From assembly GCA_038501625.1 (NCBI GenBank), contig JAZAYU010000933.1:56183-120182 (forward strand): a stretch of 64,000 nt of DNA. The letters run 5' to 3'. Origin of the DNA: Corbicula japonica. Its lineage: Eukaryota; Mollusca; Bivalvia; Venerida; Cyrenidae. The translations under genes were made by a program, and so were the position numbers. Shown here one piece after another: positions 11,142 to 54,146 of this stretch; the stretch's first letter is position 1; each line of letters begins with the position of its first letter. The notes under the pieces are model-generated. The model did not search any database. It saw nothing but the letters and a program-made list of their open reading frames with translations, and was not told the origin of the DNA.

Positions 11142-11550
11142 TTTTAAAAATGGGCGAGTCATTAATAAGCTGAAATTCATGGACTAAGTATATCAAGAAA
11201 TGACCCCATTGTCATTTTACGTCAGGTGGAATGTTTATAATTGGTTTTTTAAAGTTATTAATGTAAAATTGAAAAGTTTATTTTTTCATAACTTACAATG
11301 TGCGAATGCTGCGTTAATTGACATTCAGTGTGTAGTATAATAATTTATGTCCCCCCTTTTATAACAAGCTCTGTGGTTTTCAAAGCTCATTGTTCATCTG
11401 TTTATAAGATTCTGTTTTCGTGCGTTCCGTTTATCTTCTAACTTAATATGAACTTACTGGATCTTCTTCAGTTTTACTCTGTACATTAAGCACCATGATA
11501 TTGCGGTTTTTTTAATCACCTGATTAGCTTTATTACTTATAAAGTAATGA
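11142..11550. other. AT-rich DNA left of the LTR element
   Basis: No gene. The last five bases before the LTR, ACTAT, recur just after the right LTR. Confidence 0.4.
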
Positions 11551-11554
11551 CTAT

Positions 11555-12169
11555 TGTTATGCCCTGAAATTTAGTGTAAATTTCTTTGTAAATTTTTGAA
11601 ACTTTATAAGTTTAAAATAAATTCTATATTTGAAATTATTAAATTCTATATTAAAATCCCTACTTTTTGGGGGAAATCATTTTGTTGAATTTTAAAGTTT
11701 ATTCTAAGTTGCTTTTGACAATCTGTGGTGTTAATAGAGAAAATAATTCTTATTGTTTGACTGGTTGACACTTCTCAAAATTCTCTTTTAAGTTTGACAA
11801 CTAATCAAGAGAATAAAAGAGGTGTTAGCCAGTTGTTTTCTTATTAGATGCCATAAATAATTTTAATTACTATTTTGAGACTTAGTGTCGGTCTCGGGGC
11901 AATTATTAATCAGACGAGCTTCTGGCCCCTAAGCCATGATTTTCACAGCTCCGCCTTCGGGAAATCGGACGCGCTCATTGGTCAAACACCACCAAACCCG
12001 GGTCGCAGTTCGATCCTTTATAAGATCGCTTTTTCCAGTCAGTCAACACATCTGCTTTGACTGTTTACGTGGTATAACATTATTAAATAACTGGAAAAAG
12101 GATCTTAACTTCTTGTTCTTAATTTTAGAAATCCCCATTGAAATTTGTGTTGTGCACATCAGCATAATA
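11555..12169 (+). repeat. 5' LTR of the env-only element
   Basis: 615 bp, almost identical to 15555-16169 (differences seen near 11784 and 11845). It contains a reversed CCAAT box (CTCATTGGTC near 11975) and a TATA-like CCTTTATAAG near 12014. This marks a plausible U3/R promoter, with transcription starting about 30 bp on. It also has several AATAAA-like signals. Confidence 0.9.
11974..12024 (+). promoter_or_regulatory. LTR core promoter (CCAAT and TATA boxes)
   Basis: ATTGG (inverted CCAAT) lies about 35 bp before TTTATAAG, at a spacing seen in retroviral U3 regions. The same array is present in the 3' LTR at about 15974-16024, so that copy could drive flanking DNA. Inferred from motif and position only. 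Confidence 0.5.
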
Positions 12170-12171
12170 CG

Positions 12172-12189
12172 TGGTGGGTACGGAAGAAG
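12172..12189 (+). other. Candidate primer binding site
   Basis: TGGTGGGTACGGAAGAAG begins two bases after the 5' LTR end and starts with TGG, as needed to pair with a tRNA CCA end. I cannot assign the tRNA from memory, so this rests on position and the TGG start. Confidence 0.4.
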
Positions 12190-12239
12190 ATCCCAACCTC
12201 CACATAAGACCAAGCGAGAACACAGCTAAACATGCAGTC

Positions 12240-12374
12240 ATGGAGATGGAACGGCGACCCTCCAGATTAGTCGGACATGATATCGATTACCATCTGTCAA
12301 TCAACGAACTCGGACCTCAAAATGGACTATGTACAAGGAACAGCGATTTGAATACTCCACGCACACAAACATAA
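12240..12374 (+). CDS. Possible env leader exon or short leader ORF
   Basis: An ATG-started frame (ATG at 12240 and 12246) sits just after the primer-site region and ends at 12374. It encodes about 44 residues without recognisable motifs. The downstream envelope frame lacks an upstream ATG, and envelope mRNAs of retroviruses and errantiviruses are usually spliced. This frame could therefore supply the first codons through splicing to the acceptor near 12919. The exact donor is not clear. Confidence 0.25.
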   Translation: MEMERRPSRLVGHDIDYHLSINELGPQNGLCTRNSDLNTPRTQT

Positions 12375-12909
12375 GTGATGTTTCGGTGAATCATTAACAA
12401 AACTGTCTTGATTACTTTCCAAAAAATTGAAGAAGATAATGCGCAAATATGGGTATAGGTAATTTTGATAAAGCCAAAAACGTTAACACTCGATAGGATG
12501 GTTATACATAATGAATAGGTTTTATCGCTGTTATGAACTCTCAAAAACTTTTAATTTAAACACGTTGTCTTTGTTCACTTAATTACGTGATAGGGCTTTG
12601 GTGTTGAATATGTAGATGTAGGGTTTATTTTTAAAGCAGTTACTTGGTTGGTGGCAACATCCCAATTATGTACAATCTTTCCATATTGTAATTAAGATGT
12701 TTTATGTAGGAAGGTCAATCTCTTGGGAACTCAAATTGATCTGTATGGGGTGTGTTTGTATTGTGTGTGTGTCTGTGTGTGCTAACATGGTTTTAATTTC
12801 ATCAATTTCCGTTCCTAAATAATAGTGCTAGAATGTATAACTTGTGGCCAAAGTTTACATCATCGACTGACCTACATTCCATTGTCTTTTATTTAATTGG
12901 GGTGACCTG

Positions 12910-14184
12910 TTGCCAACCATAGTTCTGCTGATCCTATGTGCTACCATGGTTTCTGGTATTCCACCGACAGAGTTGCAGCGGCTTAACTACGGAGTTGTTT
13001 TCGAACCAAAAGCACAATTGCATCTAGCTTCTGAGATGTGGGTTCACACCTTTGAGATTGAACTTCCAAGGGAAACAAACTTGATAGATTTACCAGGATG
13101 TAACAAGAAACCAAACGTGTGTAACTTAGTTAATGAGGTCCTGGTCGAAATCAATCAAATTAGAAGTGATACGGAATCAATGATTAATAATACAATCGCC
13201 TCGATCAATCGCCTAGTACCGGAGAGAGAACTTGGTGTAAAAAGTAGGACCCGTCGGGCGCTGTTGCCTTTCATTGGCGGCTTGTCTAAAACACTGTTTG
13301 GAACAGCAACTGTTGACGATGTAGAAATGCTCGCTCGTCACATCAATGCATTAAACAAAATAACCAGTAAAGTTGTTTCAACAGTAGAACAACATGAAGA
13401 AAATTTAGCATCTTTTATCAAAGCTTCAGACGAAAGAATGTCTAATTTAATGGAAGGCATTAAGGATAATGGACTAGCTATAGAGCATATACAGACTCAA
13501 TTACATGAATCCTTCGACAATTTAGAAAGGAGTTTTTCAATCATGAGTGTTTTATTATCTAAACAAGTAGAAAAATCAAGGGCATTAGAGCATATGTTTA
13601 ATGAGTTTTTAGAAGGTATCTATGACCTTGTGGAGGGTAAAATTTCTCCTCATTTAATATCTCCTGACACCATGACCAAAACCATGAACGACATCCAAGA
13701 CATAATGTTTAAAAAATTCAATGGGTTTAATTTTGTGTTTACAGACCCTGTCGATGTTTATAAAAATGTTGATTGTTTATTTGCTAGAAAAGGGTACAGC
13801 TTGTACATTGCAGTTAAATTTCCGATCGTTCCGTTCCCAAAACCCTTATCGCTGTTCTCCTTAGTAACATTCCCAGTACCTATCAATGATTCGGTTGATC
13901 ATGCTACTCAGTTGTTAAACATGCCTGATTTGTTTGCAGTAACTGATGATTTACAATATTACACAGTATTTCAAAAGGAAGAACTAGATGGCTGCACTGA
14001 AACAAAAATCATTACTTGTAAAACAAATAAGGTTCTGACTCCGGTCACTTCAAATAGCTGTATTTTTGCTCTTTTCGCAAATGATAAAACAAATATTAAG
14101 AATTTATGTGATTTCAGGTTTCTTGTAAACCATTTAAACTCCGGTGTCGTTGCTTTGTCAGATACCAGTGTTATTCTTTATTGA
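12910..14184 (+). pseudogene. env: Envelope fusion glycoprotein, first part (F-like), ended by an in-frame TGA
   Basis: The open frame runs from 12871 but has no upstream ATG; the first is ACCATGG at 12946. A CCATAG acceptor at 12919 fits a spliced mRNA. Residue numbers below count from 12910. A hydrophobic stretch (4-15) resembles a signal peptide. A furin-type RTRR at 113-116 is followed directly by a Gly/Leu/Phe-rich fusion peptide (ALLPFIGGLSKTLFGT, 117-132) and a heptad-like helical region (about 135-240). This is the layout of baculovirus F proteins and the Env of insect errantiviruses: a short surface subunit, a cleavage site, then the fusion subunit. It should act at the virion or cell membrane. 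The frame ends at TGA 14182-14184, and the same frame stays open beyond it. The interruption is a single stop in an otherwise intact reading frame. Confidence 0.8.
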
Positions 14185-15264
14185 GTAGATACTCTTCAAT
14201 TAATCTGTAATGGTACAAAAAGAAATGTACAAGGGTGTAATTTCTGTATCATTGATATTCCTTGTCAGTGTTCAGTATCCACGGAGAAAATGTATTTACC
14301 TCAAAGATTGTCATCTTGTCAGGATAAGTCAGAAAGTAAACTACACCCATTTAATCTTGCAGTTTTACAACAATTCTTTAACGATTCATCATTAAGCGCC
14401 ATTGAAGGCAATTCAATTTTTGATAACCCGTTGATAGTTACTATCCCACAGTTTCAATTGTATAATCATTCTATGACAAATATGTTGGCCGATGATAACA
14501 AAGCACATCTTAGTTTACAGAAAATGGCCGACGCTGCGGAAAATGACGCAGTGGCATTTAGGTCCCTGACCGAAACACTTTTAGCAGGTGATATTTCCCT
14601 AGAGGAAACTTGGCCAACTACGGACAATGTTCTTTTGTATGTTACTTCATCAATAGCTTGTGTTTGCCTTCTTGCACTTTTGGCTGTTTTCCTTAAATTG
14701 AGAAAAATTATGATAGTACTTAGCGTTATGCAAAATGCGCATAAAAATCATGTCAGCGCATCCACAATCCCATCTTTCATTTATAAAAGAAACAAACCAC
14801 CTGTACTATCTGACAACACTTTATTTGAAACAATGAATCTAACTGTTGAACACTATATATTGGCTGTATGTGTATGCATTTTGTTAATTTTGATTGGGTA
14901 TATTGTATATGTTTGTAAATGTAAATGTAATAATAGTAAACCCATGCTCATAATTGAACTCACTAACGGTGAAAAGTGCGTTCAGGTGCCTTTGACCACG
15001 TTGTCGCTGTGCCCAAACTACTGGACAGTGGTTCTACCACAACATATATCGTGTATATCAATTCGAGGTTTGTGGGCACCCATTCTGTCTTTCGATTGGG
15101 ACCATTGTTTACTGGTAAACAAAATAAATGAACGAACACGGCATGTCAAAACACAATATAATATTTCAATTCTTAAAGCAAGACAAATTCGTGCCGTGCT
15201 GAGCACCACTTATTCGGTGCACTTCTTCATAAAACACAACAATTTCCTAATACCCGTTCAATGA
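14185..15264 (+). pseudogene. env: Envelope glycoprotein, second part (Cys-rich stem, membrane anchor, tail)
   Basis: This continues the frame of 12910-14184 after one TGA; the next ATG is 14290. Directly after the stop comes a Cys-rich segment (six Cys before 14290, then SSC at about 14312), as in the stem of F-type fusion proteins. It is followed by a helical part and a strong transmembrane segment (VLLYVTSSIACVCLLALLAV, about 14629-14688). A basic and polar stretch follows, then a second hydrophobic segment (about 14854-14910) ending in a CKCKC cluster. About 110 residues follow that match no family I know. It ends with TGA at 15262-15264, some 275 bp before the purine tract. Without readthrough, the first part would lack a membrane anchor. 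Confidence 0.75.
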
Positions 15265-15540
15265 CCAATTGCTATACAATAGGCCAAAAGAAGCACCTCC
15301 AAATCAAGGGTTTTGTGTATATTGTTACATATAACATGTTTGTACATATGTTACATTATTATTTGTTAACCTACTTCTGTTTTCAGATTCATTACTTATT
15401 GGGTAGTTATTTGTAATTCTTACTTGTAGACAAATGTTCTTATTTTGGTAAAATTACAATACCTTGTGTACAATATCTGAAAACTAATGTCGGTTGAAAT
15501 GTACATACCTTTTTGCACTTTATAGGAATAAAGTTATTTT

Positions 15541-15554
15541 AAAGGGGGAGGTGG
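15541..15554 (+). other. Polypurine tract
   Basis: AAAGGGGGAGGTGG abuts the first base of the 3' LTR, the expected position of the plus-strand primer of an LTR retroelement. It confirms the plus-strand orientation. Confidence 0.85.
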
Positions 15555-16169
15555 TGTTATGCCCTGAAATTTAGTGTAAATTTCTTTGTAAATTTTTGAA
15601 ACTTTATAAGTTTAAAATAAATTCTATATTTGAAATTATTAAATTCTATATTAAAATCCCTACTTTTTGGGGGAAATCATTTTGTTGAATTTTAAAGTTT
15701 ATTCTAAGTTGCTTTTGACAATCTGTGGTGTTAATAGAGAAAATAATTCTTATTGTTTGACTGGTTGACACTTCTCAAAATTCTATTTTAAGTTTGACAA
15801 CTAATCAAGAGAATAAAAGAGGTGTTAGCCAGTTGTTTTCTTATCAGATGCCATAAATAATTTTAATTACTATTTTGAGACTTAGTGTCGGTCTCGGGGC
15901 AATTATTAATCAGACGAGCTTCTGGCCCCTAAGCCATGATTTTCACAGCTCCGCCTTCGGGAAATCGGACGCGCTCATTGGTCAAACACCACCAAACCCG
16001 GGTCGCAGTTCGATCCTTTATAAGATCGCTTTTTCCAGTCAGTCAACACATCTGCTTTGACTGTTTACGTGGTATAACATTATTAAATAACTGGAAAAAG
16101 GATCTTAACTTCTTGTTCTTAATTTTAGAAATCCCCATTGAAATTTGTGTTGTGCACATCAGCATAATA
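15555..16169 (+). repeat. 3' LTR of the env-only element
   Basis: Direct copy of 11555-12169. It is followed by CTAT, repeating the four bases before the 5' LTR. Confidence 0.9.
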
Positions 16170-16173
16170 CTAT

Positions 16174-17510
16174 TTTTATGCACAGTACGTATCTAACAGG
16201 CAGTACACCTTCTAATTGTAAACACTTGAATGTATGAAAACATATCGGATCTTCTTCAAATTTAGTTTTTATGTCAAGGACCATATTGGTCGCATTTTAT
16301 AACCAGCGTGATAGCTTGTTTTTCTTATAAAATATGACCATTCTATTTTATTTACCTTTGATCGAGATTGTTGACCTAATAAACATTTTCTTCTGTTTTC
16401 TTTTATTTCTTAGTTAAATATTTGATCTTTTTTACTATTGACATTTAATATAAGTAACTACTGTTCTTGCTTATGTAATCTGATCTAAACAAGGGCGTAT
16501 GTAAATATTTAAATCAATTGTTTGCATATTCGTTAACTTTCTTCTATCAGGTTTCATTTCTAAGCTCTTATGTTGTTGCAGTATTGCCTAATATTTCTAC
16601 AGTAGTTTTATTATATACTTATTTATTAGTTCCACTTATTGTAATGGAAAGGCTCAACTGATTTAGTTCGTGCATTTGTGGTTCAGTTCTGGATATGACA
16701 GGTTGGAGGTTAAATAATCGAAGAAAGTTCAAAGAAAAATTCTGCACACGTATGATCTCGTAATAGAATATATAAGTTTAATTTGAGAAAAAAATAGCGA
16801 GAGACAGTTCTGGATGCTCATATTGTTTTTGTCGTTAGCTGTCTTACCTAGATTTTGACATACTACAAACTTAAAACGCTAGTTTTCAACGAATGGTGTA
16901 TTGTGAATAAGACGTGTATTCAGTTGTTGTGCAGTTAAAAATAAAATTAACTATTCCAATTGGTGTCTTTTAACAGAGAGATGTTTAGTAGGTGCTAAGG
17001 TATCTATTTGGAAGATTTAACTAAACAATTAGTTATAGTTGAACCTGCTATAGCAGCCACCTTCATGAAGCAACCACCTGTCTTACACAGCCAGTTTAAA
17101 TATGTCCTTACATGTACCTGGCTTTAACATCTATCTTTGTTAAGCAGTCACTTTTTGTCACTACCTTGGTTGGCTGCATAAGACATGTTTGAATGTATAC
17201 GATTTTCGTATTAAATTCACATGTATAAACGTAACACAAACTTTGTATCTTTTCTGTATAATGCAGTTTTACATTCGAATGCTTTTCACGTTCTTAAGAA
17301 GCTCGGTTCTTTTACTTTAATTACTCGTTAATCATTCATGTAAGATTCTCATTTATGACAAATTTTACATGTCAATCAACATTAACTTAACTCCGTCTTA
17401 TTTCATATACAGTGTAACGGAAAATCAACGCCGTGTATCTTTTTGTTCAATTAATGTCTCGTTTGCAGTTTTCTAACACGCTTCCGTGCATTTGTTGTAC
17501 TTATTTCACA
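16174..17510. other. AT-rich intergenic DNA with a GCAGCCAC repeat patch
   Basis: No gene seen. At 17045-17190 there are diverged short repeats of the type GCAGCCACCT/AAGCAGTCAC, spaced irregularly. They look like a decayed dispersed repeat. Confidence 0.4.
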
Positions 17511-41180: not shown

Positions 41181-42245
41181 TGTAGCGCCGTCGTCACTTC
41201 CTGGGAGGGCGGGGTGCCTCCGGATGCTAAAGCTCTCTTGAAGAGGTAGTGCAGCTACACTGTTTGATCCACCAAGCCTAGGTAGGCGGGACTGATCTTG
41301 AGAACTTGTATGTCATGTTTTGGTAGCGCTCAGCCTCGGTCACTGATCAGATGTCGGCTAACTTGCGTCTGCTGCTTGATTTAATTACTGCTAGTTTCTT
41401 GTATATGGTGTATGGGTTTTTTTAAGTTGGACTCCAACTGTTGGACTACTCATTAATTAATGGGAGTTTAGTAAACGGGTAGGGGTTTGTGTTTGCGATG
41501 AGTATGATACCTAAATTCATATAATGAAAACTAAGACCTATCTAAATCTATGAGACTTTTAATTAGTATTAAAATACTCAAAACGGCATTTCATTACTTA
41601 CTAGTATATAACGACATAACGATTCAACATATCTTTGCAAATATAACATTCTCTGTTATCACAAATAATGAGAACCCTTCAGATAAAACACCCTAAATAT
41701 ATCTACCCTTGTTGAATGGAAATTTGAACCGGAGCTTTCAGTAACACAACCCGGCAGTAGTACGCAAAATGTACAAATAAGAAAACTGACAACTTTATCT
41801 AAAATGGTAAATAAATTATTTCTGTGAATAAATTTCTCAGTAGTTAAATCCTGCTCATTCAATAAAATGTTATTGAAAGGAGAGTGCGCACCTTTAAAAC
41901 GTATTATTATGCGAAACGGCCGAAATGGCGCACTCTTATAATTTTGAAGCGTTGGAGTCCTCGAATGAAAAATTCCAAGGCTTTTATACTACAACACTAG
42001 GCACAGCGTGCCATGCGCCAGTCACAAGGCGCGGTGCGCCCGACACAACAAAAATAGCGCCTGGCACAGGACACAGTGCGCCGTGTAAAGGCACAGCCTA
42101 TCCTGTGTCGCAGGTGCTTGCGATGAACTTTGACCGTCATGGTCCATTTGAACGCAGTACTTTAACAATAAATAATTATACAAATAAGGAAAATATTATT
42201 AATTACCTCATGAGACCGTTTCCTACTGTTCATCTTGTGTTTTAC
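41181..42245 (-). repeat. 3' LTR of the Gypsy element
   Basis: Plus-strand edge TGTAGCGCCGTCG; the inner edge in minus sense reads TGTAAAACACAAG, right after the G tract. It is about 98 percent alike to the right LTR by eye, with small indels (ACTTACTAGTATATAACG against ACTTATACAACG). It contains a GC-rich mini-repeat patch at 41999-42110 (GCGCC and GGCACAG units). Confidence 0.9.
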
Positions 42246-42247
42246 AC

Positions 42248-42266
42248 TACCCCCCCCCCCCCCCCG
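42248..42266 (-). other. Polypurine tract of the Gypsy element
   Basis: On the minus strand a run of about 17 G precedes GTAG and then the 3' LTR start (TGTAAAAC). This is the expected plus-strand primer position. Confidence 0.6.
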
Positions 42267-42692
42267 GTCTTCCATGGCAAACTCCCGTTGCCATCAACGC
42301 ACAGGAGTACAAATATGTTATACTGAAGTATTGATAATGCTGACAAAACTGTTTGTCCCGTTAAAACGCTTAACAATTATTAACAAGTGTTCTCGTAAGA
42401 AAACATATATACATAAATTCTTTACTAAGAAATGTCAATATCTTCTGACTAGAGTGTACACTCACACAGTCTTTTCAGTTTCAACGTCGCATGTAAACTA
42501 ATGTCACCTTTCCAGAACTTCAGAAACACTGAATTTAAAAGATTCGCATATCTGATATTACCTGTTCCATAACGTTAATGATTAGGGCTAATATTCAAGA
42601 TCTCAATTAAAGGAATGTCACCAATTTTCCAAAACTGTTTCAATTAAATTAAACGTCACAGTACTTATTTGTTATAACTGTTTACAAGCAGC

Positions 42693-44081
42693 CTATTTTC
42701 TATGAGTGATCTTTTTGTTGTCCTTAATGTTTTCTTTGTCTTCCAGGCGTGGCTTCTTAGCTTCCTGAGCTTCGTCTGGCCTACGGTGCCACCTTCTCTG
42801 TTCTTCGGACATCCGATCTATGGATCGTGCCAGGTTCGCCATAGAATCCGCGATCTTCTTTGTGGTCTCATCAAGGTTTCTCACGGCCCGACTGTTCCAG
42901 TCAACAGCGGCCGTGAGTTTCCCGACGGCTACTTCCATAGTCTTCTCCATATGGCGGAGAGAAGCCGACACAGACTCCGCCTCGCTTGTTGTTGTTTTTT
43001 TTTGTTTGCTCCGTCTGGGTGCCCTGAGAGTTGTTGACGACCTCTCTACCTGCGGGAATAAGAATAGGTTTGAAGACAGCGGACGTTTCATTGAGGCCAA
43101 GCAGGTCATCTGTGATGTCTTCTACCACAGACCTAGTCGACGAGCTCGGTCTGACCAGCTCATCTAACAAAGGCGTGTTTAAGTTGGATCGATTTGGCGC
43201 TTCTGGGATTACTTTGCTAGGCTGGTTCGACCAGGCCGTTGTTATATCCGGGATCCTCAGAATTGGGGTTATCTGATTTGGAGGCCGGGCGGAATAGGCA
43301 GGGGCATCTGCGGCGTCATGCCCAGGGTTCGCCAGTCCATCCATTGAATCAGCAAGTGTGGTCTGTCCGCCAACGGAAGCTGAAAACTGTTTGACGACTC
43401 GGTGGGTGCCACGCTAGCCGAGAGCAAATCCTCGAATGGGATCAAACCTCCAGGCTTTGTTGCAGGCGCTGCAGGCTTTATGGTGGCCGGCTGGCGTATG
43501 AAACCTGGCCTCGTTGGATCATACATGAGAGTGGCCCTGCATGATGGGCTCAATGGTGGCAAGTTGAACGTAGGCTGGGTAGCTGTAAGGGATCGCATGG
43601 CCCTCTGCTCAAGGATGCTGGCAAGCTCTTGAGGGGTGATGCTCACCTTCACCACATCACTTTCCCCACCGATATGCAAGTCTGAACTGCCCACTTTACT
43701 AGGTAGTGGATCCTCACTAAGCTGCTGGGACCCATAACTGCAGGGTTCTGCCGCCAAAGCCTCGTAATCAAAGCCTTCCTTAGGTTCTCGAGGGTAGGGA
43801 TTCTCCACGAAGTATTTTTGAGGGTCTACATCATTGCAGCCCTCCTCACGGACCATCACAATATGGCGCTTGTAGTCGGTCACATGTTTTACGAGTGCGC
43901 TTTTCGTTACGCATCTGAAAAGGCACAATGAACAGTAAAACGGAACCTGGTCAAGAGCGAAATGGTGCTTCTGGAGGTGGTCCACCATTCGGTACCTCTC
44001 GTTTACGTACGGGGGCTGTCGGTTCTCTATACATCTCAGGCACTTGAAGAGGGGCCTTCGCCTTGTCTTGCTGATCTCCAT
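42693..44081 (-). pseudogene. Extra ORF in env position: zinc fingers plus coiled coil, two frameshifts
   Basis: The ATG at 44081 (MEISKTRRRPLFKC) follows a TGTATTTTCAG splice acceptor (minus strand, 44088-44098), suggesting a spliced subgenomic mRNA. Residues about 14-75 hold two Cys2His2-like fingers (CLRC...HLQKHH and CSLC...HVTDYKRH). A long Pro/Ser-rich middle follows. The frame then shifts near 43300 (to ...NSQGTQTEQTKK) and again at a T9 run (42995-43003). It ends with a heptad-rich stretch (MEKTMEVAV...MSEEQRRW) and a basic tail (KKPRLEDKEN). No signal peptide or membrane segment is present, so it is not an envelope protein. I do not recognise the family; nucleic-acid binding is inferred from the fingers. 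Confidence 0.65.
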
Positions 44082-44450
44082 GACAGCCTGAAAATACAGA
44101 AGGCAAGCACCGATTTACCGCCATGTTCATCACTCGGACACCAGGTTATGTCTTGAAAGCTCCGTTGTTTTTTATTTTTTGCTATTCAGCCCCAATGACC
44201 CGGGTTACCTAAATAAGACCATAAGACCGAACAGAATCTGCTACTTGTAGCTGCTCTCACTAACATCCCTTAATCTACCCTGACTAATGAAGGCACAGCT
44301 CTTCCTTAGACTGGCACCGGGAGCAAGAAGAAAACAAGATGATATGATTCTACGAGACATTTAAGACTGCTACGTTCCTAAAGGAATAGTGACTTTTATT
44401 CCTTGGATATTAACCCTAAGGCCTTTGGACATCTAACGAATGTCATTTTA

Positions 44451-44912
44451 CTACTGTGGTTGCGCTAGCCCACCCGTGGTCTTAGCCAATTTTTTTACCC
44501 ATCGTGGCTTGTTTCGGCCCTGGTACAACTTTAATTTGTCGTGATGCGCCACTCTTTTAGTTCCCTTCGCATCAAGCTGTAACACAAATGTAATTGGCGA
44601 ACGCTTTTCGACGATGGGGAATGGTCCATCATATCTCTTTTCCAACTTAGGGCATACACCTACTTTCCTGCCCTCATGCAGTAACCACACCAGTGATCCT
44701 ACTTCGAAATGTCCAACCGCCAAGCGAGTGTCGTAGGTTTCTTTACTGCGACGGGCGCTTGCGTTGATGTACCTTCGTGCCACCTCATGTGCATATCGAA
44801 GTTTTTCCTGTATTTCTTGGACATAGCCTGGGGCTGAGATAGTGCTATCGTTGGGCACTGGTCTGTACATCAGGTCAACTGGTAGTCGCACTTCACGCCC
44901 TAAACAAAGCAT
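44451..44912 (-). pseudogene. Gypsy integrase, C-terminal part (downstream of the LINE)
   Basis: Starts at MLCLGREVRLPVDLMYRP, the conserved segment following the integrase core in Gypsy elements. It then has ARRYINASARRSKETYD and a GPF/Y-type module (KRYDGPFPIVEKRSP...VAHHDKLKLY) and ends at 44451. The codons directly upstream lie at 47977, beyond the LINE. No chromodomain is seen after the GPF/Y module. Confidence 0.9.
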
Positions 44913-44913
44913 T

Positions 44914-47499
44914 TTAGAATCAATATTTTTATCCATTCCATCTCTTAATGAGTCAGAAACTGTGATCTTAGGTGATTTTAATACTAATTGTTCTTCAACA
45001 GGTAACTGTTCACTTGTAAATAGTTTAAACTCTCTTTGTGATATGTTTAGTTTTAAACAAATTATCAAAGATTTCACCAGAATAGCTTCCACATCGACAA
45101 CTATAGATTTAATTCTTGTGACAGATCCAGATAAGATTTCTCAGAGTGGTGTTATTGATTGTTGTATTAGTGACCACTTGATGACATTTTGTACTAGAAA
45201 AGTTACTCATGCATATATTGGGAAACATAATACTGTAAATGTTAGATCTCTTAAACATTATTCTAAAGAAAGTTTTCAACAATCTTTGTTAGGATGTGAT
45301 TGGACGTCAGTGTTATATTGTGACAATGTAAATGATGCTTGGAACAATTTTAAATCAGTTTTTATATCAACAATGGATTCAATTGCTCCAGTCAAGTCTG
45401 TCCGCATAAAGCAGAGAACTGAAGAATGGGTTGACTCCGAGGTTTTACAAAGCATTAAAGATAGGGACAAGGCTTTTTATAATTACAAAAGAAACAAAAC
45501 TGAAGAAAATCTTAACTATTTTAGAACCATGAGGAATAAAGCAAACCAGATTATCATGAGTGCCAAAAAGAATTATTTTAAATCATCAGTAGAAAACAAC
45601 ATGTCTGATTCTAAATCTTTATGGAAAACACTGAAAAGTTTAGGCTTACCAAATAAAGATAGTCAAGGTTCAAGTAATATTGGTTTGAATATTGATGGGG
45701 AAGTCTGTTTTGACAAACTAAAGGTTGCAGAGAAATTTAATTCTTTTTATACTTCTGTAGCTGAAAAACTTGTCAATAAATTGCCAAAAATTAGTAATAA
45801 GTTTGGAGAAAATTTTGTTTTTAACTTTTATTCGTCGAAGAGTGTTAAGAGAGATACTTTTTCTTTTTCTATTGTGTCCGAAAGCAAAGTTCTTAAGTAC
45901 TTAAACAATTTATGTCCTAATAAAGCTACAGGACTAGATGGTATCCCTTCACGTTTCATAAAAGATTCAGCCCAAATTATTGCGGGTCCTCTTGCGCATA
46001 TTATTTACTTGTCAATTATCCAGGGTGTGGTTCCCGATGACCTAAAGTCTGCCCGGGTAGTCCCAATTTACAAGAAAAGTGACAAAACGGATGTTGGAAA
46101 TTACCGTCCTGTTTCAATTTTAAGTATTTTATCTAAGGTCATTGAACGTGTTATTTACGACCAACTGGAAGATTATTTAGCTTCTAATAGCCTACTTTAT
46201 AAACATCAGTCTGGCTTCAGGCATGGGTATTCAACTGACACCTGCCTTGTGCATCTTACTGACTATATCAGGTTCCAAATGGACAAAGGTCACCTAGTTG
46301 GTATGATCCTGTTAGACCTTCAAAAAGCGTTCGATACGGTCAATCATTCTATTCTTTTAATGAAACTTAAAGCCATGGGTCTAACTCAGTCATCCCTGAT
46401 GTGGTTTTCTTCATATTTATCTGACAGACATCAGCTGGTTGAGTTGTCAGGTACAAGGTCTTCTACCAAGAATATTACTTGCGGGGTTCCCCAGGGATCT
46501 ATTTTAGGCCCACTATTATTTCTCATCTATGTAAATGACATGTCTGCAGTTGTTAAAAATAAGTTGTTACTATATGCTGATGATTCTGCTATACTTGTGT
46601 CTGCCAGGAATAAATCAGATATTGAGAATAAGTTAAGTAATGATTTAAATAATGTAAGTCATTGGTTGGTTAATAATAAGCTTTCATTACATCTTGGCAA
46701 AACAGAATCAATCTTATTTGGTTCAAAACCGAGAATAAGATCTCAACCATCACTTGACATTACTTGCAATGGCTCTTCAATAGAATCCAAAACTTCAGTT
46801 AAGTATCTTGGCGTAATCATTGACCAGTGTCTGTCTTTTGAATCGATGGCTAGGGCTATAATTAAGAAGTCAAATGCCCGACTGAAATTCCTATACCGAA
46901 AACAAAGTTTTCTTAACCAGTACACCAGGAAACTCTTGGTTATGTCCCTTATTCAGTGTCATTTTGACTATGCCTCTTCAGCTTGGTTCAACAGTCTTAC
47001 ACAGGACTTAAAACATAAACTGCAGGTTACACAGAATAGGCTCATTAGATTTGTTTTGAACTTGCATCCCAGGTCACATATTGGCAAGGAGGAGTTTATT
47101 AGGCTCAACTGGTTACCAGTGGCATCCAGAGTCAATCAAATTATACTTTGTCATGTTTTTAAAATTAATTCAAAGCTTGCCCCATCCTACCTAAATGACC
47201 ATTTTACACCTGTTATGAATATTCATGAAAAAAATACAAGGTTCAGGGTAAAAATTGACTCCACTAATAATGATAATTCAAATACAGTCTTGGAGAATAG
47301 CAAGAGGTTTTGTATACCCAAGGTCAAAGGGTTTGGCATGAAATCGTTTGCCTACAATGGTTGTACCCTCTGGAATGCTTTACCACAAATTGCCAGAGAT
47401 GCCAAAACTGTGGCCTCTTTTAAAATATTATCAATGAACATATTTTTAATTCTTTGTAAATGTGTTTTAGTCAATCTATTTTATACTAGTACTGTATAA
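44914..47499 (+). CDS. LINE ORF2: endonuclease tail plus reverse transcriptase
   Basis: The LINE-derived frame starts at about 44914; upstream codons are antisense Gypsy. The end of an APE-type endonuclease is present (VILGDFNTNCSS, 44962-44997). A complete RT follows: GLDGIPSRFIKD, VVPIYKKSDKTDVGNYRPVS, GMILLDLQKAFDTVNHSILL (first catalytic Asp), GVPQGSILGPLLFLIYVND, then YADD (46573-46584) and KYLGVIID. A C-terminal region follows (QNRLIRFVLNL..., LNWLPVASRVNQI). The frame is uninterrupted for over 850 codons, so the copy is recent. The protein would nick and copy LINE RNA at a target site. Lacking the 5' end and most of the endonuclease, this copy should be inactive. The closest clade is inferred from motif wording only. 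Confidence 0.92.
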   Translation, partial: LESIFLSIPSLNESETVILGDFNTNCSSTGNCSLVNSLNSLCDMFSFKQIIKDFTRIASTSTTIDLILVTDPDKISQSGVIDCCISDHLMTFCTRKVTHAYIGKHNTVNVRSLKHYSKESFQQSLLGCDWTSVLYCDNVNDAWNNFKSVFISTMDSIAPVKSVRIKQRTEEWVDSEVLQSIKDRDKAFYNYKRNKTEENLNYFRTMRNKANQIIMSAKKNYFKSSVENNMSDSKSLWKTLKSLGLPNKDSQGSSNIGLNIDGEVCFDKLKVAEKFNSFYTSVAEKLVNKLPKISNKFGENFVFNFYSSKSVKRDTFSFSIVSESKVLKYLNNLCPNKATGLDGIPSRFIKDSAQIIAGPLAHIIYLSIIQGVVPDDLKSARVVPIYKKSDKTDVGNYRPVSILSILSKVIERVIYDQLEDYLASNSLLYKHQSGFRHGYSTDTCLVHLTDYIRFQMDKGHLVGMILLDLQKAFDTVNHSILLMKLKAMGLTQSSLMWFSSYLSDRHQLVELSGTRSSTKNITCGVPQGSILGPLLFLIYVNDMSAVVKNKLLLYADDSAILVSARNKSDIENKLSNDLNNVSHWLVNNKLSLHLGKTESILFGSKPRIRSQPSLDITCNGSSIESKTSVKYLGVIIDQCLSFESMARAIIKKSNARLKFLYRKQSFLNQYTRKLLVMSLIQCHFDYASSAWFNSLTQDLKHKLQVTQNRLIRFVLNLHPRSHIGKEEFIRLNWLPVASRVNQIILCHVFKINSKLAPSYLNDHFTPVMNIHEKNTRFRVKIDSTNNDNSNTVLENSKRFCIPKVKGFGMKSFAYNGCTLWNALPQIARDAKTVASFKILSMNIFLILCKCVLVNLFYTSTV

Positions 47500-47976
47500 C
47501 AGAATATTTATCTTACTGATATAATGGATAGATTGTTTCTGACGTGTCATAGACAAACCTGATGGTATTGTGATCATTGCAACAGTTAGCATGTATAATG
47601 TGATATGTGTCAAACCTATTCAGTCATTTTTCATTGTGTATTAATTTTATTGCTAGATTTTAATGTGTATGTAATTCATTCATCATATCGTATTTATTTT
47701 AACTACTAAGTCTTTCATAAGCAATGCCAAGAGATTTCATTTAGACTGTGATATTTTCCTATGTCATACAATATTATATAAAAAGGACCACAATGGAAAT
47801 AAGAGTTTATATTAACTCTTTTTTGTGTAATCCTTGATATGTAATGTTGGGTGACATGGCTTATTGTTTAGCATGATACATACATATTTGTTATATGTTT
47901 ATATGTATGATTATTGTTGCAATTCAATGCCATGTTTCTTTGTGCATTATATATTGAAATAAATCTATCTATCTAT
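47500..47976 (+). other. LINE 3' UTR and tail
   Basis: AT-rich noncoding stretch between the RT stop and the ATCT tail. RT recognition of the RNA 3' end would act here. Confidence 0.75.
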
Positions 47977-50900
47977 GTTTGGAGTTAGCTTAGTCGTCTC
48001 ACTTGGGGATGACCGATATGCTCCCGCGATGCAGCCTAGATATAGATCCCAGTCTTCTTGGTCAACAAGATAGACTTTTTTTATCATACTCAGCAGCGTC
48101 CGGTTGAATCTCTCGGTTTGACCGTTGCCCTTTGGATTCCTCGGACTCGTCCGACTCTTTCTGATTTGAAATAATTGGCACAACTCCTTAAATAGCCTAC
48201 TTTCAAAGGTCGTCCCCTGGTCGCTGTGTATAGACAACGGTGCACCCCAGCGTGCTACAAAGTCGTTTGCAATCTTAAGAGCACACTCCTCTGCTTGTTG
48301 GTTCTTCACGGGTATCACCTCCACGTACTTTGTAAAGTGGTCAGTGAGGACCAGTATATATTTATTTCCACGCGGTGTTTCGGGAAGAGGGCCCAGATAG
48401 TCCAGGGCCAAAGTGTCCCATGGCGCCATACTTGGGAGATGACCCATAGGACCCTTTGGGGTTTTCTTTGGCAATTCGTCAGACGCGCAAACATCGCATG
48501 CCTTTACATGCAGGCTTATCCTCTCTTTAACATTGAACCAATAGTACCCACGGAGCAGTTTTTGTTTTGTTTTCTTGATCCCGAGGTGTCCCGCCAACAG
48601 TCCATCATGTACCTGTCTAAGGATTTCATCTTTGCGACATTCTGGTACAATTACTTGCAGGTAAGTGTCTGTATTGTTCATCTTCCGAAATTTTCTGCAG
48701 AGAACTCCATCATGCGTTTCAAGGTCATCCCACAACAGCCAATAGTGCCTTGCTGCTGGGCTCTCGCTTTTCATGGCATCGCTGGATGGCTTATCAGCTT
48801 TCTCTTTAGCATTTATTATCAAGGTCAAGTCTGGGTCATTTCTTTGGTCAGCAGCCATGCTTTGAGCGACAACTTTGTCATACCATGGCCTTTTCAGTCT
48901 TGAATCATCAGGGCTCGAGGTGCTCGCTGCATTAACATCAACCTTTCTGGTCACATCTTGTACGGCAGCGGTCTCTACTAAAGTAGTTTTGACATCTGCG
49001 GCTTCAGCATCAGTACTATTCATAGCCAGCTGCATTTCTTCAGCTCTCCTTTTACACTTTTTGCAGGGCCCGCATTTCAGCGGCTCTGATGTATCTACGT
49101 CATGGCAGTTGCAATCCCTTGGTTGTGGACAGCGCGACAACGCATCACAGTGTGGCTGCTTCCTCCCTGGCCTATATTCGATACCGAAGTCGTAAGGTGC
49201 TAGGATCTCTAGCCAACGTGCAATCTTCCCATTCGGTTCCTTAAGTGAAAACAGCAAGACAAGCGCTTGGTGATCAGTCCTAACCACGAACCTCCTGCCC
49301 AATAGGTACTGGCGGAAGTATTGTATGAAGAACACAACCGCCAGCAGTTCTTTCTCTGTAATACAATAGTTGCGCTCTGCTTTACTAAGGCCCCTGCTGG
49401 CATAGGATATCACCCTCTCTCTCTGTCTTCCTGTATTTGAGCCAATACCGCCCCAATACCCACACCCGATGCGTCAGTGTCCAGTATAAAACTGCCACCA
49501 TCATTTAGAGGAAACCCCATGACATCTGGGCTTGTCAATGCTGATTTTAACTGATTAAAAGCGTCTTCACATGAACTGTTCCAAGTAAATTCTACGCCCT
49601 TCTTTGTGAGGTCAATCAATGGTCTTGCAGTTTTTGCGAAATCCTTTACAAATCGGCGGTAGTATGAACCGGTCGCAACAAATTGCTTTACTTGCTTCGC
49701 ATTCTCTGGTCTAGGCCAACCTATCAACTTCGAGATGTTCGATGGATCTGGGCGCACTCCCTCTTTAGAGACTACATGCCCAAGGAACACAACCTCGGTT
49801 TGGAACATATTACATTTGTCAGGGCGAAGCTTAAGACCCGCTTGTTTAAGTCTGCTCAGCACCTGATCTACCCGCTCAATATGTTGTTCGAATGTCGTCC
49901 CATAGACAATGATGTCATCAATATATACGAGGCAGGTCTCCCATTGAAGCCCCTGGAGAGCGAGCTCCATTGTGCGCTGGAACGTACTACTGCTGTTATT
50001 CAGGCCAAACGGCATTTTAGTCATCTCAAAATGTCCGTATTTACATACAAATGCACTCTTGGGGATATCTTCCTTTTTGAGCGGTATCTGGAAGTATCCG
50101 CTTGTCAGGTCAAAGCTACTGAAGAGACTGGCACCAGATACGGCATCTAAGCAGTCATGCACTCTAGGCAAGGGGAACCCATCGGGCTTGACAAGAGCAT
50201 TCACCTTACGATAGTCGACACACGGTCGGATTGCCCCCGATTTTTTTTTTCACCAGTACAATTGGGCTTGCCCAGGGCGACGTTCTCTTCTGTATAACTT
50301 CCTTGCGCAGCAGATCTTCAATGGCGGCCTTCTCTTCTTGAGCATACGCTAAAGGCACGCGTCTCGGGCGCTGCTTGATTGGGGCAGCGTCTCCAGTGTT
50401 AATAGCGTGTTCCGCAAGGTGCGTTACCCCAAGGTCCCATTCGTCCTTTGAGAAGGTGTCAGAATATTTTCCTAGCAATCCAGCTATCATTTCTGTTTCT
50501 TGTTCACTTCTGCCTTTTGACGCTTTCACGAACAGTTCTTGTAGATGCCTCGGGACCTGTGTATCTTTCGCCACTGGAAAACCCTCAGTCTCCCCACTCG
50601 GCTTAACGTTTGCAAATTCTACCCTCCGCACATGATTTAAGTTCTCTGTCTCATCTGCATGTTCCACCTCGGTAATAACGCTCACCACCATTTGAATCGC
50701 TTCAGCTCGTCCTATTTCAGCATCCTGTTTAAGCTCTACAACAGAGGGCAATGGATTCATAACCCGGATCTTCGAGGTCGCTGATCTATTTATATCCACA
50801 AGAGTTGATCCCATCACCAACTGATATCGATCTTTAAACCCGTCTGTGGGCTCCACGAGAAAGTCAGCTCGACTGTTTTCATCATCACCCTCCATCCGTT

Positions 50901-51402
50901 CAACGAAGACATCTACCAATGCCTCAGATTTTCCCGGAATGCTTATATTATCAGCTACCGTAACTTTTCTGGCTCTTGGTGATTTAACCCGCTGTCGGCA
51001 CTCTATCTCCGTGCCATTTAGCACTATAATATTCTTGCTAAGTAACAGATCAGCAGGACCCTTCTCGTCACCCACCAACACATCATATCCCAGAAGGATA
51101 TCGTCTTCAATGTCCGCAACAATCATCTCTCTTCTAAGTTGGAGCTTCCCTAGTTGTATATTGAACATCGCCTTGCCCCTTTCCCTTATTGGGGTCCCTC
51201 CAGCCCCTTTTAGACAAGCGGAGCCAGTCAACCTCGGCTTCATATCCTCTTCCAGTCTGTCATACATCCTAGATGACAAAATGGTCCTCGAGGCTCCTGT
51301 GTCTGCCGTGAAAACAATAGGCTCCTTCTCAACAAATCCATCAATATACACACCATCGCCCAACTCTCTAGGCTCCCTAGCCTTTGCCGATCTAGCGGAC
51401 AT
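47977..51402 (-). pseudogene. pol: Gypsy pol: protease, RT, RNase H, integrase (N-terminal and core)
   Basis: Read on the minus strand. A retropepsin has the ADTGAS active site (about 51304-51287) and an ILLGYDVL block. The RT begins after HAINTGDAAPIKQRPRRVP and continues after a frameshift in an A10 run (50241-50250). It then has FSSFDLTSGYFQIPL, FGLNNSSSTFQRTM, and the YIDD catalytic box (about 49927). RNase H begins with DTDASGVGIGAVLAQ, is broken by a shift in a CT-rich run near 49430, and continues as SYASRGLSKAERNYC. The integrase has an HHCC finger (HDGLLAGHLG...CDVCASDE) and a D,D-35-E core (LDYLGPLP, HSDQGTTF, NGQTERFNR). It stops at the LINE junction. The enzymes would copy and insert the element. 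Confidence 0.93.
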
Positions 51403-51458
51403 TTCCGCCGTTGGCGGGTCCTTCTCTGTTACAGTGTTGTGGGGCTTCTCTGTCTGAC

Positions 51459-52941
51459 TTACTGGGACCTCCCTTTGCCCGCAAGGAATGGTCCTCTGGA
51501 GTTTAAAGGTTGGTCATTGTCCTTGGACTTGTCTCGCGCGTTCTCTTGATTTTCATGTGTATCCTTGTTGGGACAATCCCTGGCAAAATGTCCGAGATTG
51601 TGACAATTAAAACACTCAGCATCTCGCCTATCTTTTTTCCCATTTGTCTTTCTTTGTTTCTGCTGCGCATGTGCCTCTTCCAGCTTTTCGATTCTCTGTA
51701 GGATCTTCTCTAGCATTTTTGTTTGCTTGTCCTCAGCACTTTTACCGTAACTCGCTGTGCCGCTCACTTTCCACCTGCTTATGATTCGGTCCTTGGACCC
51801 GATTTATCGGATCACTAGAGCAGCACTGGTCTTCACCAGATTCAAACTCTCCCTCCAGCTGTGTTCTCCTGGTCGGCTTTCTTCGATCATAACGGCTGGT
51901 GTTGTTGTTGACCGCTTGAAACACCGCCTCGTCGATATTTTGCGGCTCCTTATGATATTCGACCTCAAACCTTAGCTCATCATCGTACAAGCCGTCAAGA
52001 AATCGTCGTACCAAATCCTCATCACGCGTCCTACGGTCCCTATAACCATGGGCTTTATCGTACAGTCTCTTCAATTCTGCCGCATAATCCTCCGCCGTCT
52101 CGCCTTGCCTCTGCGCTCTCCGGCTAAATTTTGCTGCAAATGAGCGGGCTGTCTCAATCTTCCTAAACCGACTATTCAGCTCAGCTACGAGGTCGTCATA
52201 ATTCCTGAGAACAGGGGGCGGCAACTGTGTAAATACAAACTCACTTGCTTCACCCTCTAATCTTGGCAGAAGCTGGTCCAGCTTGTCTTCATTTCCCCAG
52301 CGGTACCGTTCCGCTATAACCTCAAAACGGGCGATCCATGTGGGCCAATCCTCCTTACCATTAAATGCGGGAAGCTTTACACTTGTGGTGTGCCAAGACG
52401 GCGTGTGCGAATGCTCATCTTGGAAGTGTTGCCAGTCACGGCCCTCACTCGGCGCGGGGCCCCTATAGCGGTCCGCCTGTGATCGGTTATGACTTATGTT
52501 GTATGGATCTGGCCGAAAATTGTCTGGCCGAAAGCTATTATAGGCTGTCCTAGATGAGCGATCGTAGTTAAGTGCAGTGTGCCTTTCTTCCCTGGGGGGC
52601 CGGTAATATATGCCGTCTGAGGAGACCTCATTATTATTGTTAGCTGTTGCATTAGTGGGCCTAACAGTAGCTTGCTTTATTATTCCGAGCTCTTTTACTA
52701 CATCTCTTAAGGCGCTAGTCACTCCCGTCATAAGTTCTGACATCTGACTTACGGCATTGTCATTGATATTGTTATGCGTACCTGGGGCAATGCTCACTCC
52801 TTCCCCCACCGTGGATTCAACGTCAGACATTTCGTCAGCAGTCTCAAATCCACCCGCTATGCTAGGTTTGATAGCCCCTACTGGTGATTGCTTGTTAAAG
52901 GATATGACCCCTTCACTGTCCACGGCACTTGGGTCAATCAT
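51459..52941 (-). pseudogene. gag: Gypsy gag: capsid and CCHC nucleocapsid, one frame change
   Basis: The frame opens at ATG 52941 (MIDPSAVDSEG). A low-complexity N-terminal third precedes a capsid-like helical region (VKLPAFNGKEDWPTWIARFE, ...LPRLEGEASEFVF..., GETAEDYAAELKRLYDKAHG). This wording is typical of Gypsy Gag (retrotransposon gag domain). The frame ends near 51742. A +1-shifted frame (51767 to 51459) continues with a Lys-rich stretch and one zinc knuckle, CFNCHNLGHFARDC. The overlap could be an indel or a programmed shift; no classical slippery heptamer is evident. Gag would form the intracellular particle that packages the RNA. Confidence 0.9.
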
Positions 52942-53010
52942 CGTGCAACTCTTTTATTCGTGAGGACGCTGGTTCGATCGCAGGATCTGACTACAACAAT
53001 ATTAAATCAG

Positions 53011-53028
53011 ATCCCACCGCTGCCACCA
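53011..53028 (-). other. Primer binding site, tRNA-Leu
   Basis: The plus-strand bases ATCCCACCGCTGCCACCA are the 3' end of a metazoan tRNA-Leu (T-stem, acceptor stem and CCA), so the minus strand reads TGGTGGCAGCGGTGGGAT. It lies four bases inside the 5' LTR edge at 53033. The tRNA match is from memory of animal tRNA-Leu ends. Confidence 0.85.
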
Positions 53029-53032
53029 TAAA

Positions 53033-54092
53033 TGTAGCGCCGTCGTCACTTCCTGGGAGGGCGGGGTGCCTCCGGATGCTAAAGCTCTCTTGAAGAGGTA
53101 GTGCAGCTACACTGTTTGATCCACCAGGCCTATGTCGGCGGAACTGATCTTGAGAACTTGTATGTCATGTTTTGGTAGCGCTCAGCCTCGGTCACTGATC
53201 AGATGTCGGCTAACTTGCGTCTGCTGCTTGATTTAATTACTGCTAGTTTCTTGTATATGGTGTATGGGTTTCTTTAAGTTGGACTCCAACTGTTGGACTA
53301 CTCATTAAGTAATGGGAGTTTAGTAAACGGGTAGGGGTTTGTATTTGCGATGAGTATGATACCTAAATTCATATAATGAAAACTAAGACCTATCTAAATC
53401 TATGAGACTTTTAATTAGTATTAAAATACTCAAAACGGCATTTCATTACTTATACAACGACATAACGATTCAACATATCTTTGCAAATATAAACTTCTCT
53501 GTTATCACAAATAATGAGAACCCTTCAGATAAAACACCCTAAATATATCTACCCTTGTTGAATGGAAATTTGAACCGGAGCTTTCAGTAACACAACCCGG
53601 CAGTAGTACGCAAAATGTACAAATAAGAAAACTGACAACTTTATCTAAAATGGTAAATAAATTATTTCTGTGAATAAATTTCTCAGTAGTTAAATCCTGC
53701 TCATTCAACAAAATGTTATTGAAAGGAGAGTGCGCACCTTTAAAACTTATTATTATGCGAAACGGCCGAAATGGCGCACTCTTATAATTTTGAAGCGTTG
53801 GAGTCCTCGAATGAAAAGTTCCAAGGCTTTTATACTACAACACTAGGCACAGCGTGCCATGCGCCAGTCACAAGGCGCGGTGCGCCCGACACAACAAAAA
53901 TAGCGCCTGGCACAGGACACAGTGCGCCGTGTGAAGGCACAGCCTATCCTGTGTCGCAGGTGCTTGCGATGAACTTTGACCGTCATGGTCCATTTGAACG
54001 CAGTACTTTAACAATAAATAATTATAGAAATAAGGAAATTATTATTAATTACCTCATAAGACCGTTTCCTACTGTTCATCTTGTGTTATTTT
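53033..54092 (-). repeat. 5' LTR of the Gypsy element
   Basis: Direct copy of 41181-42245, with the same edge TGTAGCGCCG. The right end is ragged: the shared sequence stops at CATCTTGTGTT (54087), where the 3' LTR goes on TTACA. A few terminal bases are therefore changed or lost here. Confidence 0.88.
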
Positions 54093-54146
54093 TTATGTAT
54101 TTAACAGCGAAAAGTAATAAAACAACAAGCGTCTAAATATTCGATA

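What the first reader, a model, noticed from the sequence alone, without database searches (positions are those of the whole stretch)
11555..16169. Env-only LTR retroelement of recent origin
Seen: near-identical 615-bp LTRs (two differences by eye), a 4-5 bp target duplication, a purine tract, and an interior whose only recognisable gene is an F-like fusion envelope. Known: errantiviruses and retroviruses carry env with gag and pol, and non-autonomous LTR elements usually lose coding capacity altogether or keep gag. Keeping only env is unusual. Inference: a parasite element whose product (a membrane-fusion protein) may be the selected part, for pseudotyping a helper's particles, for superinfection resistance, or as a step to a host-adopted fusogen.
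Basis: partly seen in the sequence, partly recalled or inferred. Interest (0 to 1): 0.9.

Follow-up and report, generated by a model that had tools for sequence, protein, structure and literature searches.

The report
Env gene recombined into defective retroelement
A recently inserted, defective virus-like jumping gene carries only an envelope gene, which it appears to have picked up by recombination from a complete relative rather than kept while losing the rest; the envelope gene is already interrupted and this arrangement was found once.

Summary
In detail: two 615-bp LTRs with 2 differences, a 4-bp target duplication (CTAT), a purine tract, and an interior whose only recognisable gene is a baculovirus-F-like env. 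That env is split by an in-frame TGA.

The interpretation needs changing. The host assembly holds a long relative on contig C19 with gag, RT/RNase H, integrase, a weakly matching protease, an env 98.3% identical to this one (first piece) and the same LTR family. It also holds gag-pol-less, nearly env-less short elements (C53, C272, and a fragment on C211) that share this element's leader.

Around window position 12,545 the element switches sharply. In a four-way comparison it follows C272 upstream (5:0 informative sites) and C19 downstream (94:0). The best reading is a copy-choice recombinant: a gag-pol-less parasite that gained env from a full-length relative, probably in the reverse transcription that made this insertion.

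It is the only one of 10 env loci in its close subfamily without gag upstream, and no second copy of the junction was found. Nothing found supports selection for env in this form. New variant of a known kind, modest interest.

The parts
11551..11554 (.). target-site duplication, left copy (CTAT)
11555..12169 (+). 5' LTR, 615 bp, TGTTATGC...GCATAATA
   Evidence: family members elsewhere in the genome
12170..12219 (+). leader next to the LTR (expected primer-binding region; tRNA not identified), shared with gag-bearing C817 (50/50) and C19 (36 bp, 94%) and with the gag-pol-less copies
12220..12430 (+). leader segment matched only in C272, C53 and C211, where gag stands in C19 and C817
12431..12523 (+). 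decayed remnant aligning with the 3' end of pol (end of the integrase frame) and start of the spacer of C19, 53/82 identical
12524..12544 (+). recombination breakpoint zone, a tract 82-95% identical (18-21 of 22 columns) between any two of the five copies compared
12545..12870 (+). pol-env spacer of C19 type (93% then 97% to C19; 65% then 80% to C53 and C272)
12871..14184 (+). env piece 1, 437 aa then in-frame TGA at 14182-14184; F-like (Pfam Baculo_F); no ATG in frame before its hydrophobic N-terminal segment (12883-12939)
13246..13257 (+). furin-type site RTRR followed by a fusion-peptide-like stretch (function label recalled)
14185..15264 (+). env piece 2, 359 aa, hydrophobic segments at 14629-14685 and 14857-14913
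15265..15540 (+). post-env region; over 15265-15554, 270/279 identical to C53 and 232/278 to C272, gaps left out
15541..15554 (+). polypurine tract AAAGGGGGAGGTGG
15555..16169 (+). 3' LTR, 615 bp
16170..16173 (.). target-site duplication, right copy (CTAT)

Best explanation
This is a non-autonomous Ty3/gypsy-type LTR element that acquired its env by recombination. Shown: its leader and decayed pol tail are those of a gag-pol-less group (C272, C53, C211), and the stretch from 12,545 through env to where C19 breaks off (about 14,756) is of the C19 type, a long relative bearing gag, pol and env. Inferred: RNAs of a C272-like parasite and of a C19-like full-length element were co-packaged. Reverse transcriptase, copying minus strand from the 3' end of the full-length RNA through env, switched to the parasite RNA in the shared tract at about 12,524-12,544 and finished on its leader. 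The product was integrated with a 4-bp duplication by enzymes supplied by another element. One switch at the moment of this insertion is enough, so an env-only lineage need never have existed.
For: Sharp mosaic: of four-way informative sites among window, C272, C53 and C19, all 5 with window=C272 lie at or before 12523, all 94 with window=C19 lie at or after 12545, and 0 have window=C53. In the three-way comparison, window=C272 against C53 at 51 sites before 12545 and 4 after; C53=C272 against the window at 3 before and 105 from there on. C53 and C272 keep the other downstream type next to the shared leader, and C211 follows them for about 26 bp past the point where its match to the window ends, so the window copy is the odd one. 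C19 has gag, RT/RNase H, IN and env domains with LTRs of this family and TSD AAAT. The gag-pol-less copies are independent insertions, CTTG at C53 with LTRs identical over 1213 of 1213 bp and CTTC at C272, so the group was mobilised recently. C272 has mismatched LTRs (790/935 identical), another sign of recombination in the group. The leader/spacer search found 8 places, all 8 candidates scored; only the window joins this leader to a C19-type spacer.
Against: The actual env donor is not found; C19 is a close relative (env piece 1 98.3%) and an older insertion by LTR divergence (21/782 against 2/615). The upstream side has only 5 four-way sites, because C19 has gag-pol there and only 82 columns of pol tail and spacer can be aligned. 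C211 supports polarity over only about 26 bp. C53's own leader is only 72% like the window's in 12351-12523, and C272 is itself a probable recombinant, so which copies are parental is not certain. Gene conversion between genomic copies would leave a similar mosaic. The 3' end (post-env, LTR) cannot be assigned, since C19 is truncated there and C53 is 270/279 identical to the window in post-env; a second crossover is possible.
Confidence: 0.82

Rival explanations
1. Simple internal deletion: a full-length element lost gag-pol in one step and inserted here with env retained.
For: A long relative with the same LTR family exists; the arrangement was found once.
Against: The pol-tail remnant is only 65% identical to C19 while the adjoining spacer and env are 93-98%; the leader segment is shared at 95-100% with C272, which has a different downstream type. 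One deletion would not give that pattern.
Confidence: 0.1
2. An env-only lineage that spreads as such, with the env product selected for pseudotyping, superinfection resistance or host use.
For: Between the window and C19 env piece 1, changes are 12 nonsynonymous to 9 synonymous, dN/dS 0.36, so env was under constraint for part of its history; gag-pol-less relatives do move (C53).
Against: No second env-bearing gag-pol-less copy was found among the places scored; env has an in-frame stop; the constraint is explained by descent from full-length elements, and 21 changes are too few to place it on this branch. Two distant env loci (L042, L044) without a detected integrase were not resolved.
Confidence: 0.05
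3. Assembly error joining pieces of different elements.
For: The family is repetitive and mosaic.
Against: LTRs match at 613 of 615 sites, the same 4-bp duplication flanks both ends, and the mosaic point lies in the interior, away from the LTRs. Mosaicism also occurs in C272 on another contig.
Confidence: 0.03

Closest known systems
Env-bearing Ty3/gypsy elements (errantiviruses / insect ERVs with Env-F; envelope-carrying gypsy elements across animals)
   Same: Baculovirus-F-like env with furin-type site after pol, gypsy-type gag, RT-RNase H and integrase in the C19 relative, 4-bp target duplication. Recombination between env-bearing and env-deficient variants of one family, with exchange of env-F mutations, is reported in Drosophila rover (PMC12992720, passages seen).
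   Different: Here the partner is gag-pol-less and the product has env but no gag or pol. That paper argues against env-F exchange between lineages (passage).
Non-autonomous LTR elements (LARD/TRIM-type, recalled; RLG_Quinta with RLG_Cereba in wheat)
   Same: Shares LTR ends, leader and purine tract with related elements; mosaic attributed to template switching in the wheat case (PMC11302176, passages seen).
   Different: RLG_Quinta keeps gag; this copy has env alone.
Env recombination in vertebrate endogenous retroviruses, and env-only loci such as Fv-4
   Same: A paper treats env recombination as a driver of retroviral diversity (PMC10536682, listing and start of abstract only); env-only proviral loci exist (Fv-4, recalled).
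   Different: Those are vertebrate retroviral Envs, some with shown functions (recalled); this is an F-like env, interrupted, with no functional evidence.

Membership tests
Env-bearing Ty3/gypsy (errantivirus-like) element | F-like env downstream of pol | tested here: met
   Baculo_F above cut-off in window env piece 1; in C19 env follows integrase. In the window itself only a pol-tail remnant precedes env
Env-bearing Ty3/gypsy (errantivirus-like) element | gag and pol (PR-RT-RH-IN) in the element | tested here: not met
   No match of C19 gag, pol or integrase pieces in the window interior beyond the pol-tail remnant at 12431-12523. C19 meets it for gag, RT, RNase H and integrase; its protease matches are below Pfam cut-offs (23.9 of 26 and 19.2 of 20.7 bits), while C817's are above for two of these families
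Env-bearing Ty3/gypsy (errantivirus-like) element | placement in the errantivirus clade by RT tree | not tested
   no RT in the window element; no tree was built for C19
Non-autonomous LTR retrotransposon | LTRs, leader and PPT without gag-pol, with TSD | tested here: met
Non-autonomous LTR retrotransposon | shares cis signals with an autonomous partner | tested here: inconclusive
   LTR and first 50 bp of leader shared with gag-bearing C817 and C19, but C817 is partial and C19's gag and env are interrupted; no intact autonomous partner with this LTR was found
Non-autonomous LTR retrotransposon | multiple copies of the same structure | tested here: inconclusive
   gag-pol-less leader in 4 places (window, C272, C53, C211), but with a long env only in the window
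Host-adopted env gene | intact frame kept by selection | tested here: not met
   in-frame TGA at 14182-14184
Host-adopted env gene | expression and function in the host | not testable with these tools
   no RNA data

The most novel reading that the evidence does not exclude
Gag-pol-less parasites of an errantivirus-like element regain env by recombination with their helper, and an env-bearing parasite can supply envelope in trans or travel in the helper's enveloped particles, so that env passes between autonomous and parasitic lineages as a shared module. The window insertion would be one snapshot of that traffic.
Probability: 0.1. Interest if true: 0.65.

Novelty: new variant of a known kind. 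Interest (0 to 1): 0.35.

Why it matters
It shows, to within about 20 bases and inside one assembly, how a defective LTR element can come to carry env: by a switch to the sequence of a full-length relative, not by selective retention. That is a warning against reading function into env-only elements, and it gives a concrete case of env moving between gag-pol-bearing and gag-pol-less gypsy-type elements in what is probably a bivalve.

Tried and rejected
Retained env after one deletion: rejected because pol-tail and env divergences from C19 disagree. Further env-only copies: 30 of the 71 env matches were cut out, each with up to 1.5 kb upstream; 25 of 30 gave an integrase match with the C19 bait. 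The window copy (L021) and L042, L043, L044 and L047 gave none, also with baits taken from six other loci. L043 is a fragment of the C546 locus whose upstream part (L033) has integrase; L047 matches only residues 249-437 of env piece 1, so its upstream stretch may not reach pol. The other 41 matches, many of them weak or partial, were not tested for integrase. Pfam on small upstream frames of L042, L044 and L047 gave nothing above cut-off. Phage and viral-contig collections gave no relatives. No Rfam family at gathering score and no tRNA in the window. Spliced env RNA as the source of the gag-pol loss: considered and set aside, since a decayed pol tail precedes the junction. Host naming: a search with the window's LINE frame gave no useful taxon; bivalve is inferred from the only named env relatives, Pinctada imbricata twice and Magallana gigas once, 3 of 31. 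The tRNA for the primer site and a structure prediction were not attempted.
Full report
Observation. The window is part of contig C933 of a 1.07-Gb assembly. Two 615-bp LTRs at 11555-12169 and 15555-16169 differ at 2 sites and are flanked by the 4-bp duplication CTAT. A purine tract, AAAGGGGGAGGTGG, ends at 15554. The interior has two long frames in line, 12871-14184 and 14185-15264, separated by an in-frame TGA. The first matches Pfam Baculo_F at E 3.3e-11 and has a furin-type RTRR at 13246-13257. The second has two hydrophobic segments and no Pfam match. Pieces of C19 gag and pol find nothing in the interior by DNA, nor does its integrase by protein. Of 31 protein relatives of env piece 1, 3 carry a name, all bivalve: Pinctada imbricata at 37% and 34% and Magallana gigas at 35%; the best unnamed ones reach 60%.

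Copies in the genome. The LTR finds 52 matches (40 of 219 candidates scored), env piece 1 finds 71 (96 of 120), env piece 2 finds 48 (61 of 61) and the gag frame of C817 finds 87 (103 of 1225); counts are lower bounds where not all candidates were scored. The closest env is on C19, 97% in protein and 98.3% in DNA over piece 1. Ten env loci have a piece-1 match of 61% or better: window, C19, C4 (at 4.65 Mb), C61, C63, C343 twice, C55, C286 and C546. Nine of the ten have a gag match upstream in the same orientation, 4.7-5.8 kb from the env match; only the window copy does not. The two short C933 matches of that search are LTR and leader, where the gag frame used as query begins.

The long relative. 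On C19 (L051, L052, minus strand) an LTR of this family is followed by gag (Retrotrans_gag 5.7e-8), RT (8.1e-33), RNase H, integrase (H2C2 6.1e-22, rve 4.3e-10) and env (Baculo_F 4.3e-9), then a truncated env end and 3' LTR, with TSD AAAT. Protease matches are below the curated cut-offs in C19 but above for two families in C817. The C19 gag match has 2 stops and its env a stop at codon 412 of the compared stretch, so it is not itself intact. Its LTRs differ at 21 of 782 compared sites, so its insertion is older than the window's (2 of 615).

The gag-pol-less group. The 701-bp leader and spacer of the window finds 8 places, all 8 candidates scored. C53 and C272 carry LTR, leader, spacer, the first ~130 bp of env, post-env and LTR, about 1.2 kb of interior, with no match to C19 gag or pol. 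C53 has identical LTRs (1213/1213) and TSD CTTG; C272 has TSD CTTC and mismatched LTRs, 790/935. C211 holds a truncated LTR and the same leader, then departs; no env, pol or gag beyond the leader part was found in its 6 kb. The segment 12431-12523 aligns at 53/82 to the end of pol in C19, a decayed pol tail.

The mosaic. Identity of the window to C272 is 95-100% in 12220-12523 and 65% in 12546-12700; to C19 it is 65% in 12431-12523, 93% in 12546-12700 and 97% in 12701-12870. In the four-way comparison all 5 sites for window=C272 lie at or before 12523 and all 94 for window=C19 at or after 12545, with 0 for window=C53. In the three-way comparison window=C272 against C53 at 51 sites before 12545 and 4 after, and C53=C272 against the window at 3 before and 105 from there on. 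The breakpoint tract is 82-95% identical between any two of the five copies. C53 and C272 share one downstream type, and C211 follows it for about 26 bp, so I take the window as the recombinant; C53's leader is itself different in 12351-12523 (72%), and C272 may be recombinant too.

LTR form. C19, C53, C272 (3') and C817 have LTRs of about 1.2 kb, with a block of about 525 bp between two copies of an 84-bp repeat (LTR positions 491-574); the window LTR has one repeat and no block. More diverged LTRs on C51, C105 and C373 (88-91% identity) also lack the block, as does the C211 fragment. As the window LTR is 98-99% like those of C272 (3'), C53 and C817 over the first 574 bp (94% like C19), loss of the block between the repeats is likely, but an unbroken short line is not excluded.

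Selection. Between window and C19 env piece 1 there are 12 nonsynonymous and 9 synonymous changes, dN/dS 0.36; the second piece was not scored because the alignment had gaps. That is constraint inherited from full-length elements as readily as anything else.

Mechanism. Recombination during reverse transcription between env-bearing and env-deficient variants is described for Drosophila rover (PMC12992720, passages), and template switching is proposed for the wheat Quinta lineages (PMC11302176, passages). The window fits this, with the unusual outcome that the product carries env alone. I judge it at 0.82, leaving room for gene conversion and for a second crossover on the 3' side. My searches for print on env-only or env-capturing non-autonomous LTR elements (20 of 24, 15 of 15 and 10 of 10 papers listed) showed none I recognised as this case, but only open-licence papers are held, and I saw only listings, starts of abstracts and passages. 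The eLife paper on envelope-carrying retrotransposons in animals was not held; I know of it only through its citation in PMC13172572 (passages).

Noticed in passing
window 41898-54136: A larger gypsy-type element on the minus strand (gag-, protease-, RT- and integrase-like frames between about 47,965 and 52,953, named by eye) with matching end frames at 41898 and 53744, and a LINE-like frame of 890 aa on the plus strand at 44827-47499 that appears to sit inside it.
   Followed up: partly
L054 (C817:107700-113300): LTR-gag-protease-RT of the same family running into an inverted LTR of the same family, a head-to-head structure that may come from auto-integration or rearrangement.
   Followed up: no
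[quoted passage not shown]
   Followed up: partly
window 11441-11554 and 16224-16341: The two flanks share a similar stretch of about 115 bp in direct orientation (local alignment score 93; identity not computed), ending at the insertion point on the left; the host site may be an old tandem repeat.
   Followed up: no
C29:3363096-3364331 (L042) and C937:54158-55138 (L044): Distant env relatives (30% and 32%) for which no integrase was found in the 1.5 kb upstream; possible further gag-pol-poor env loci.
   Followed up: partly
proteins P0029 and P0031: Predicted bivalve proteins joining a gag domain (Pfam, above cut-off) to an env start, perhaps gene models spliced across pol, which would fit env expression by splicing.
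   Followed up: partly
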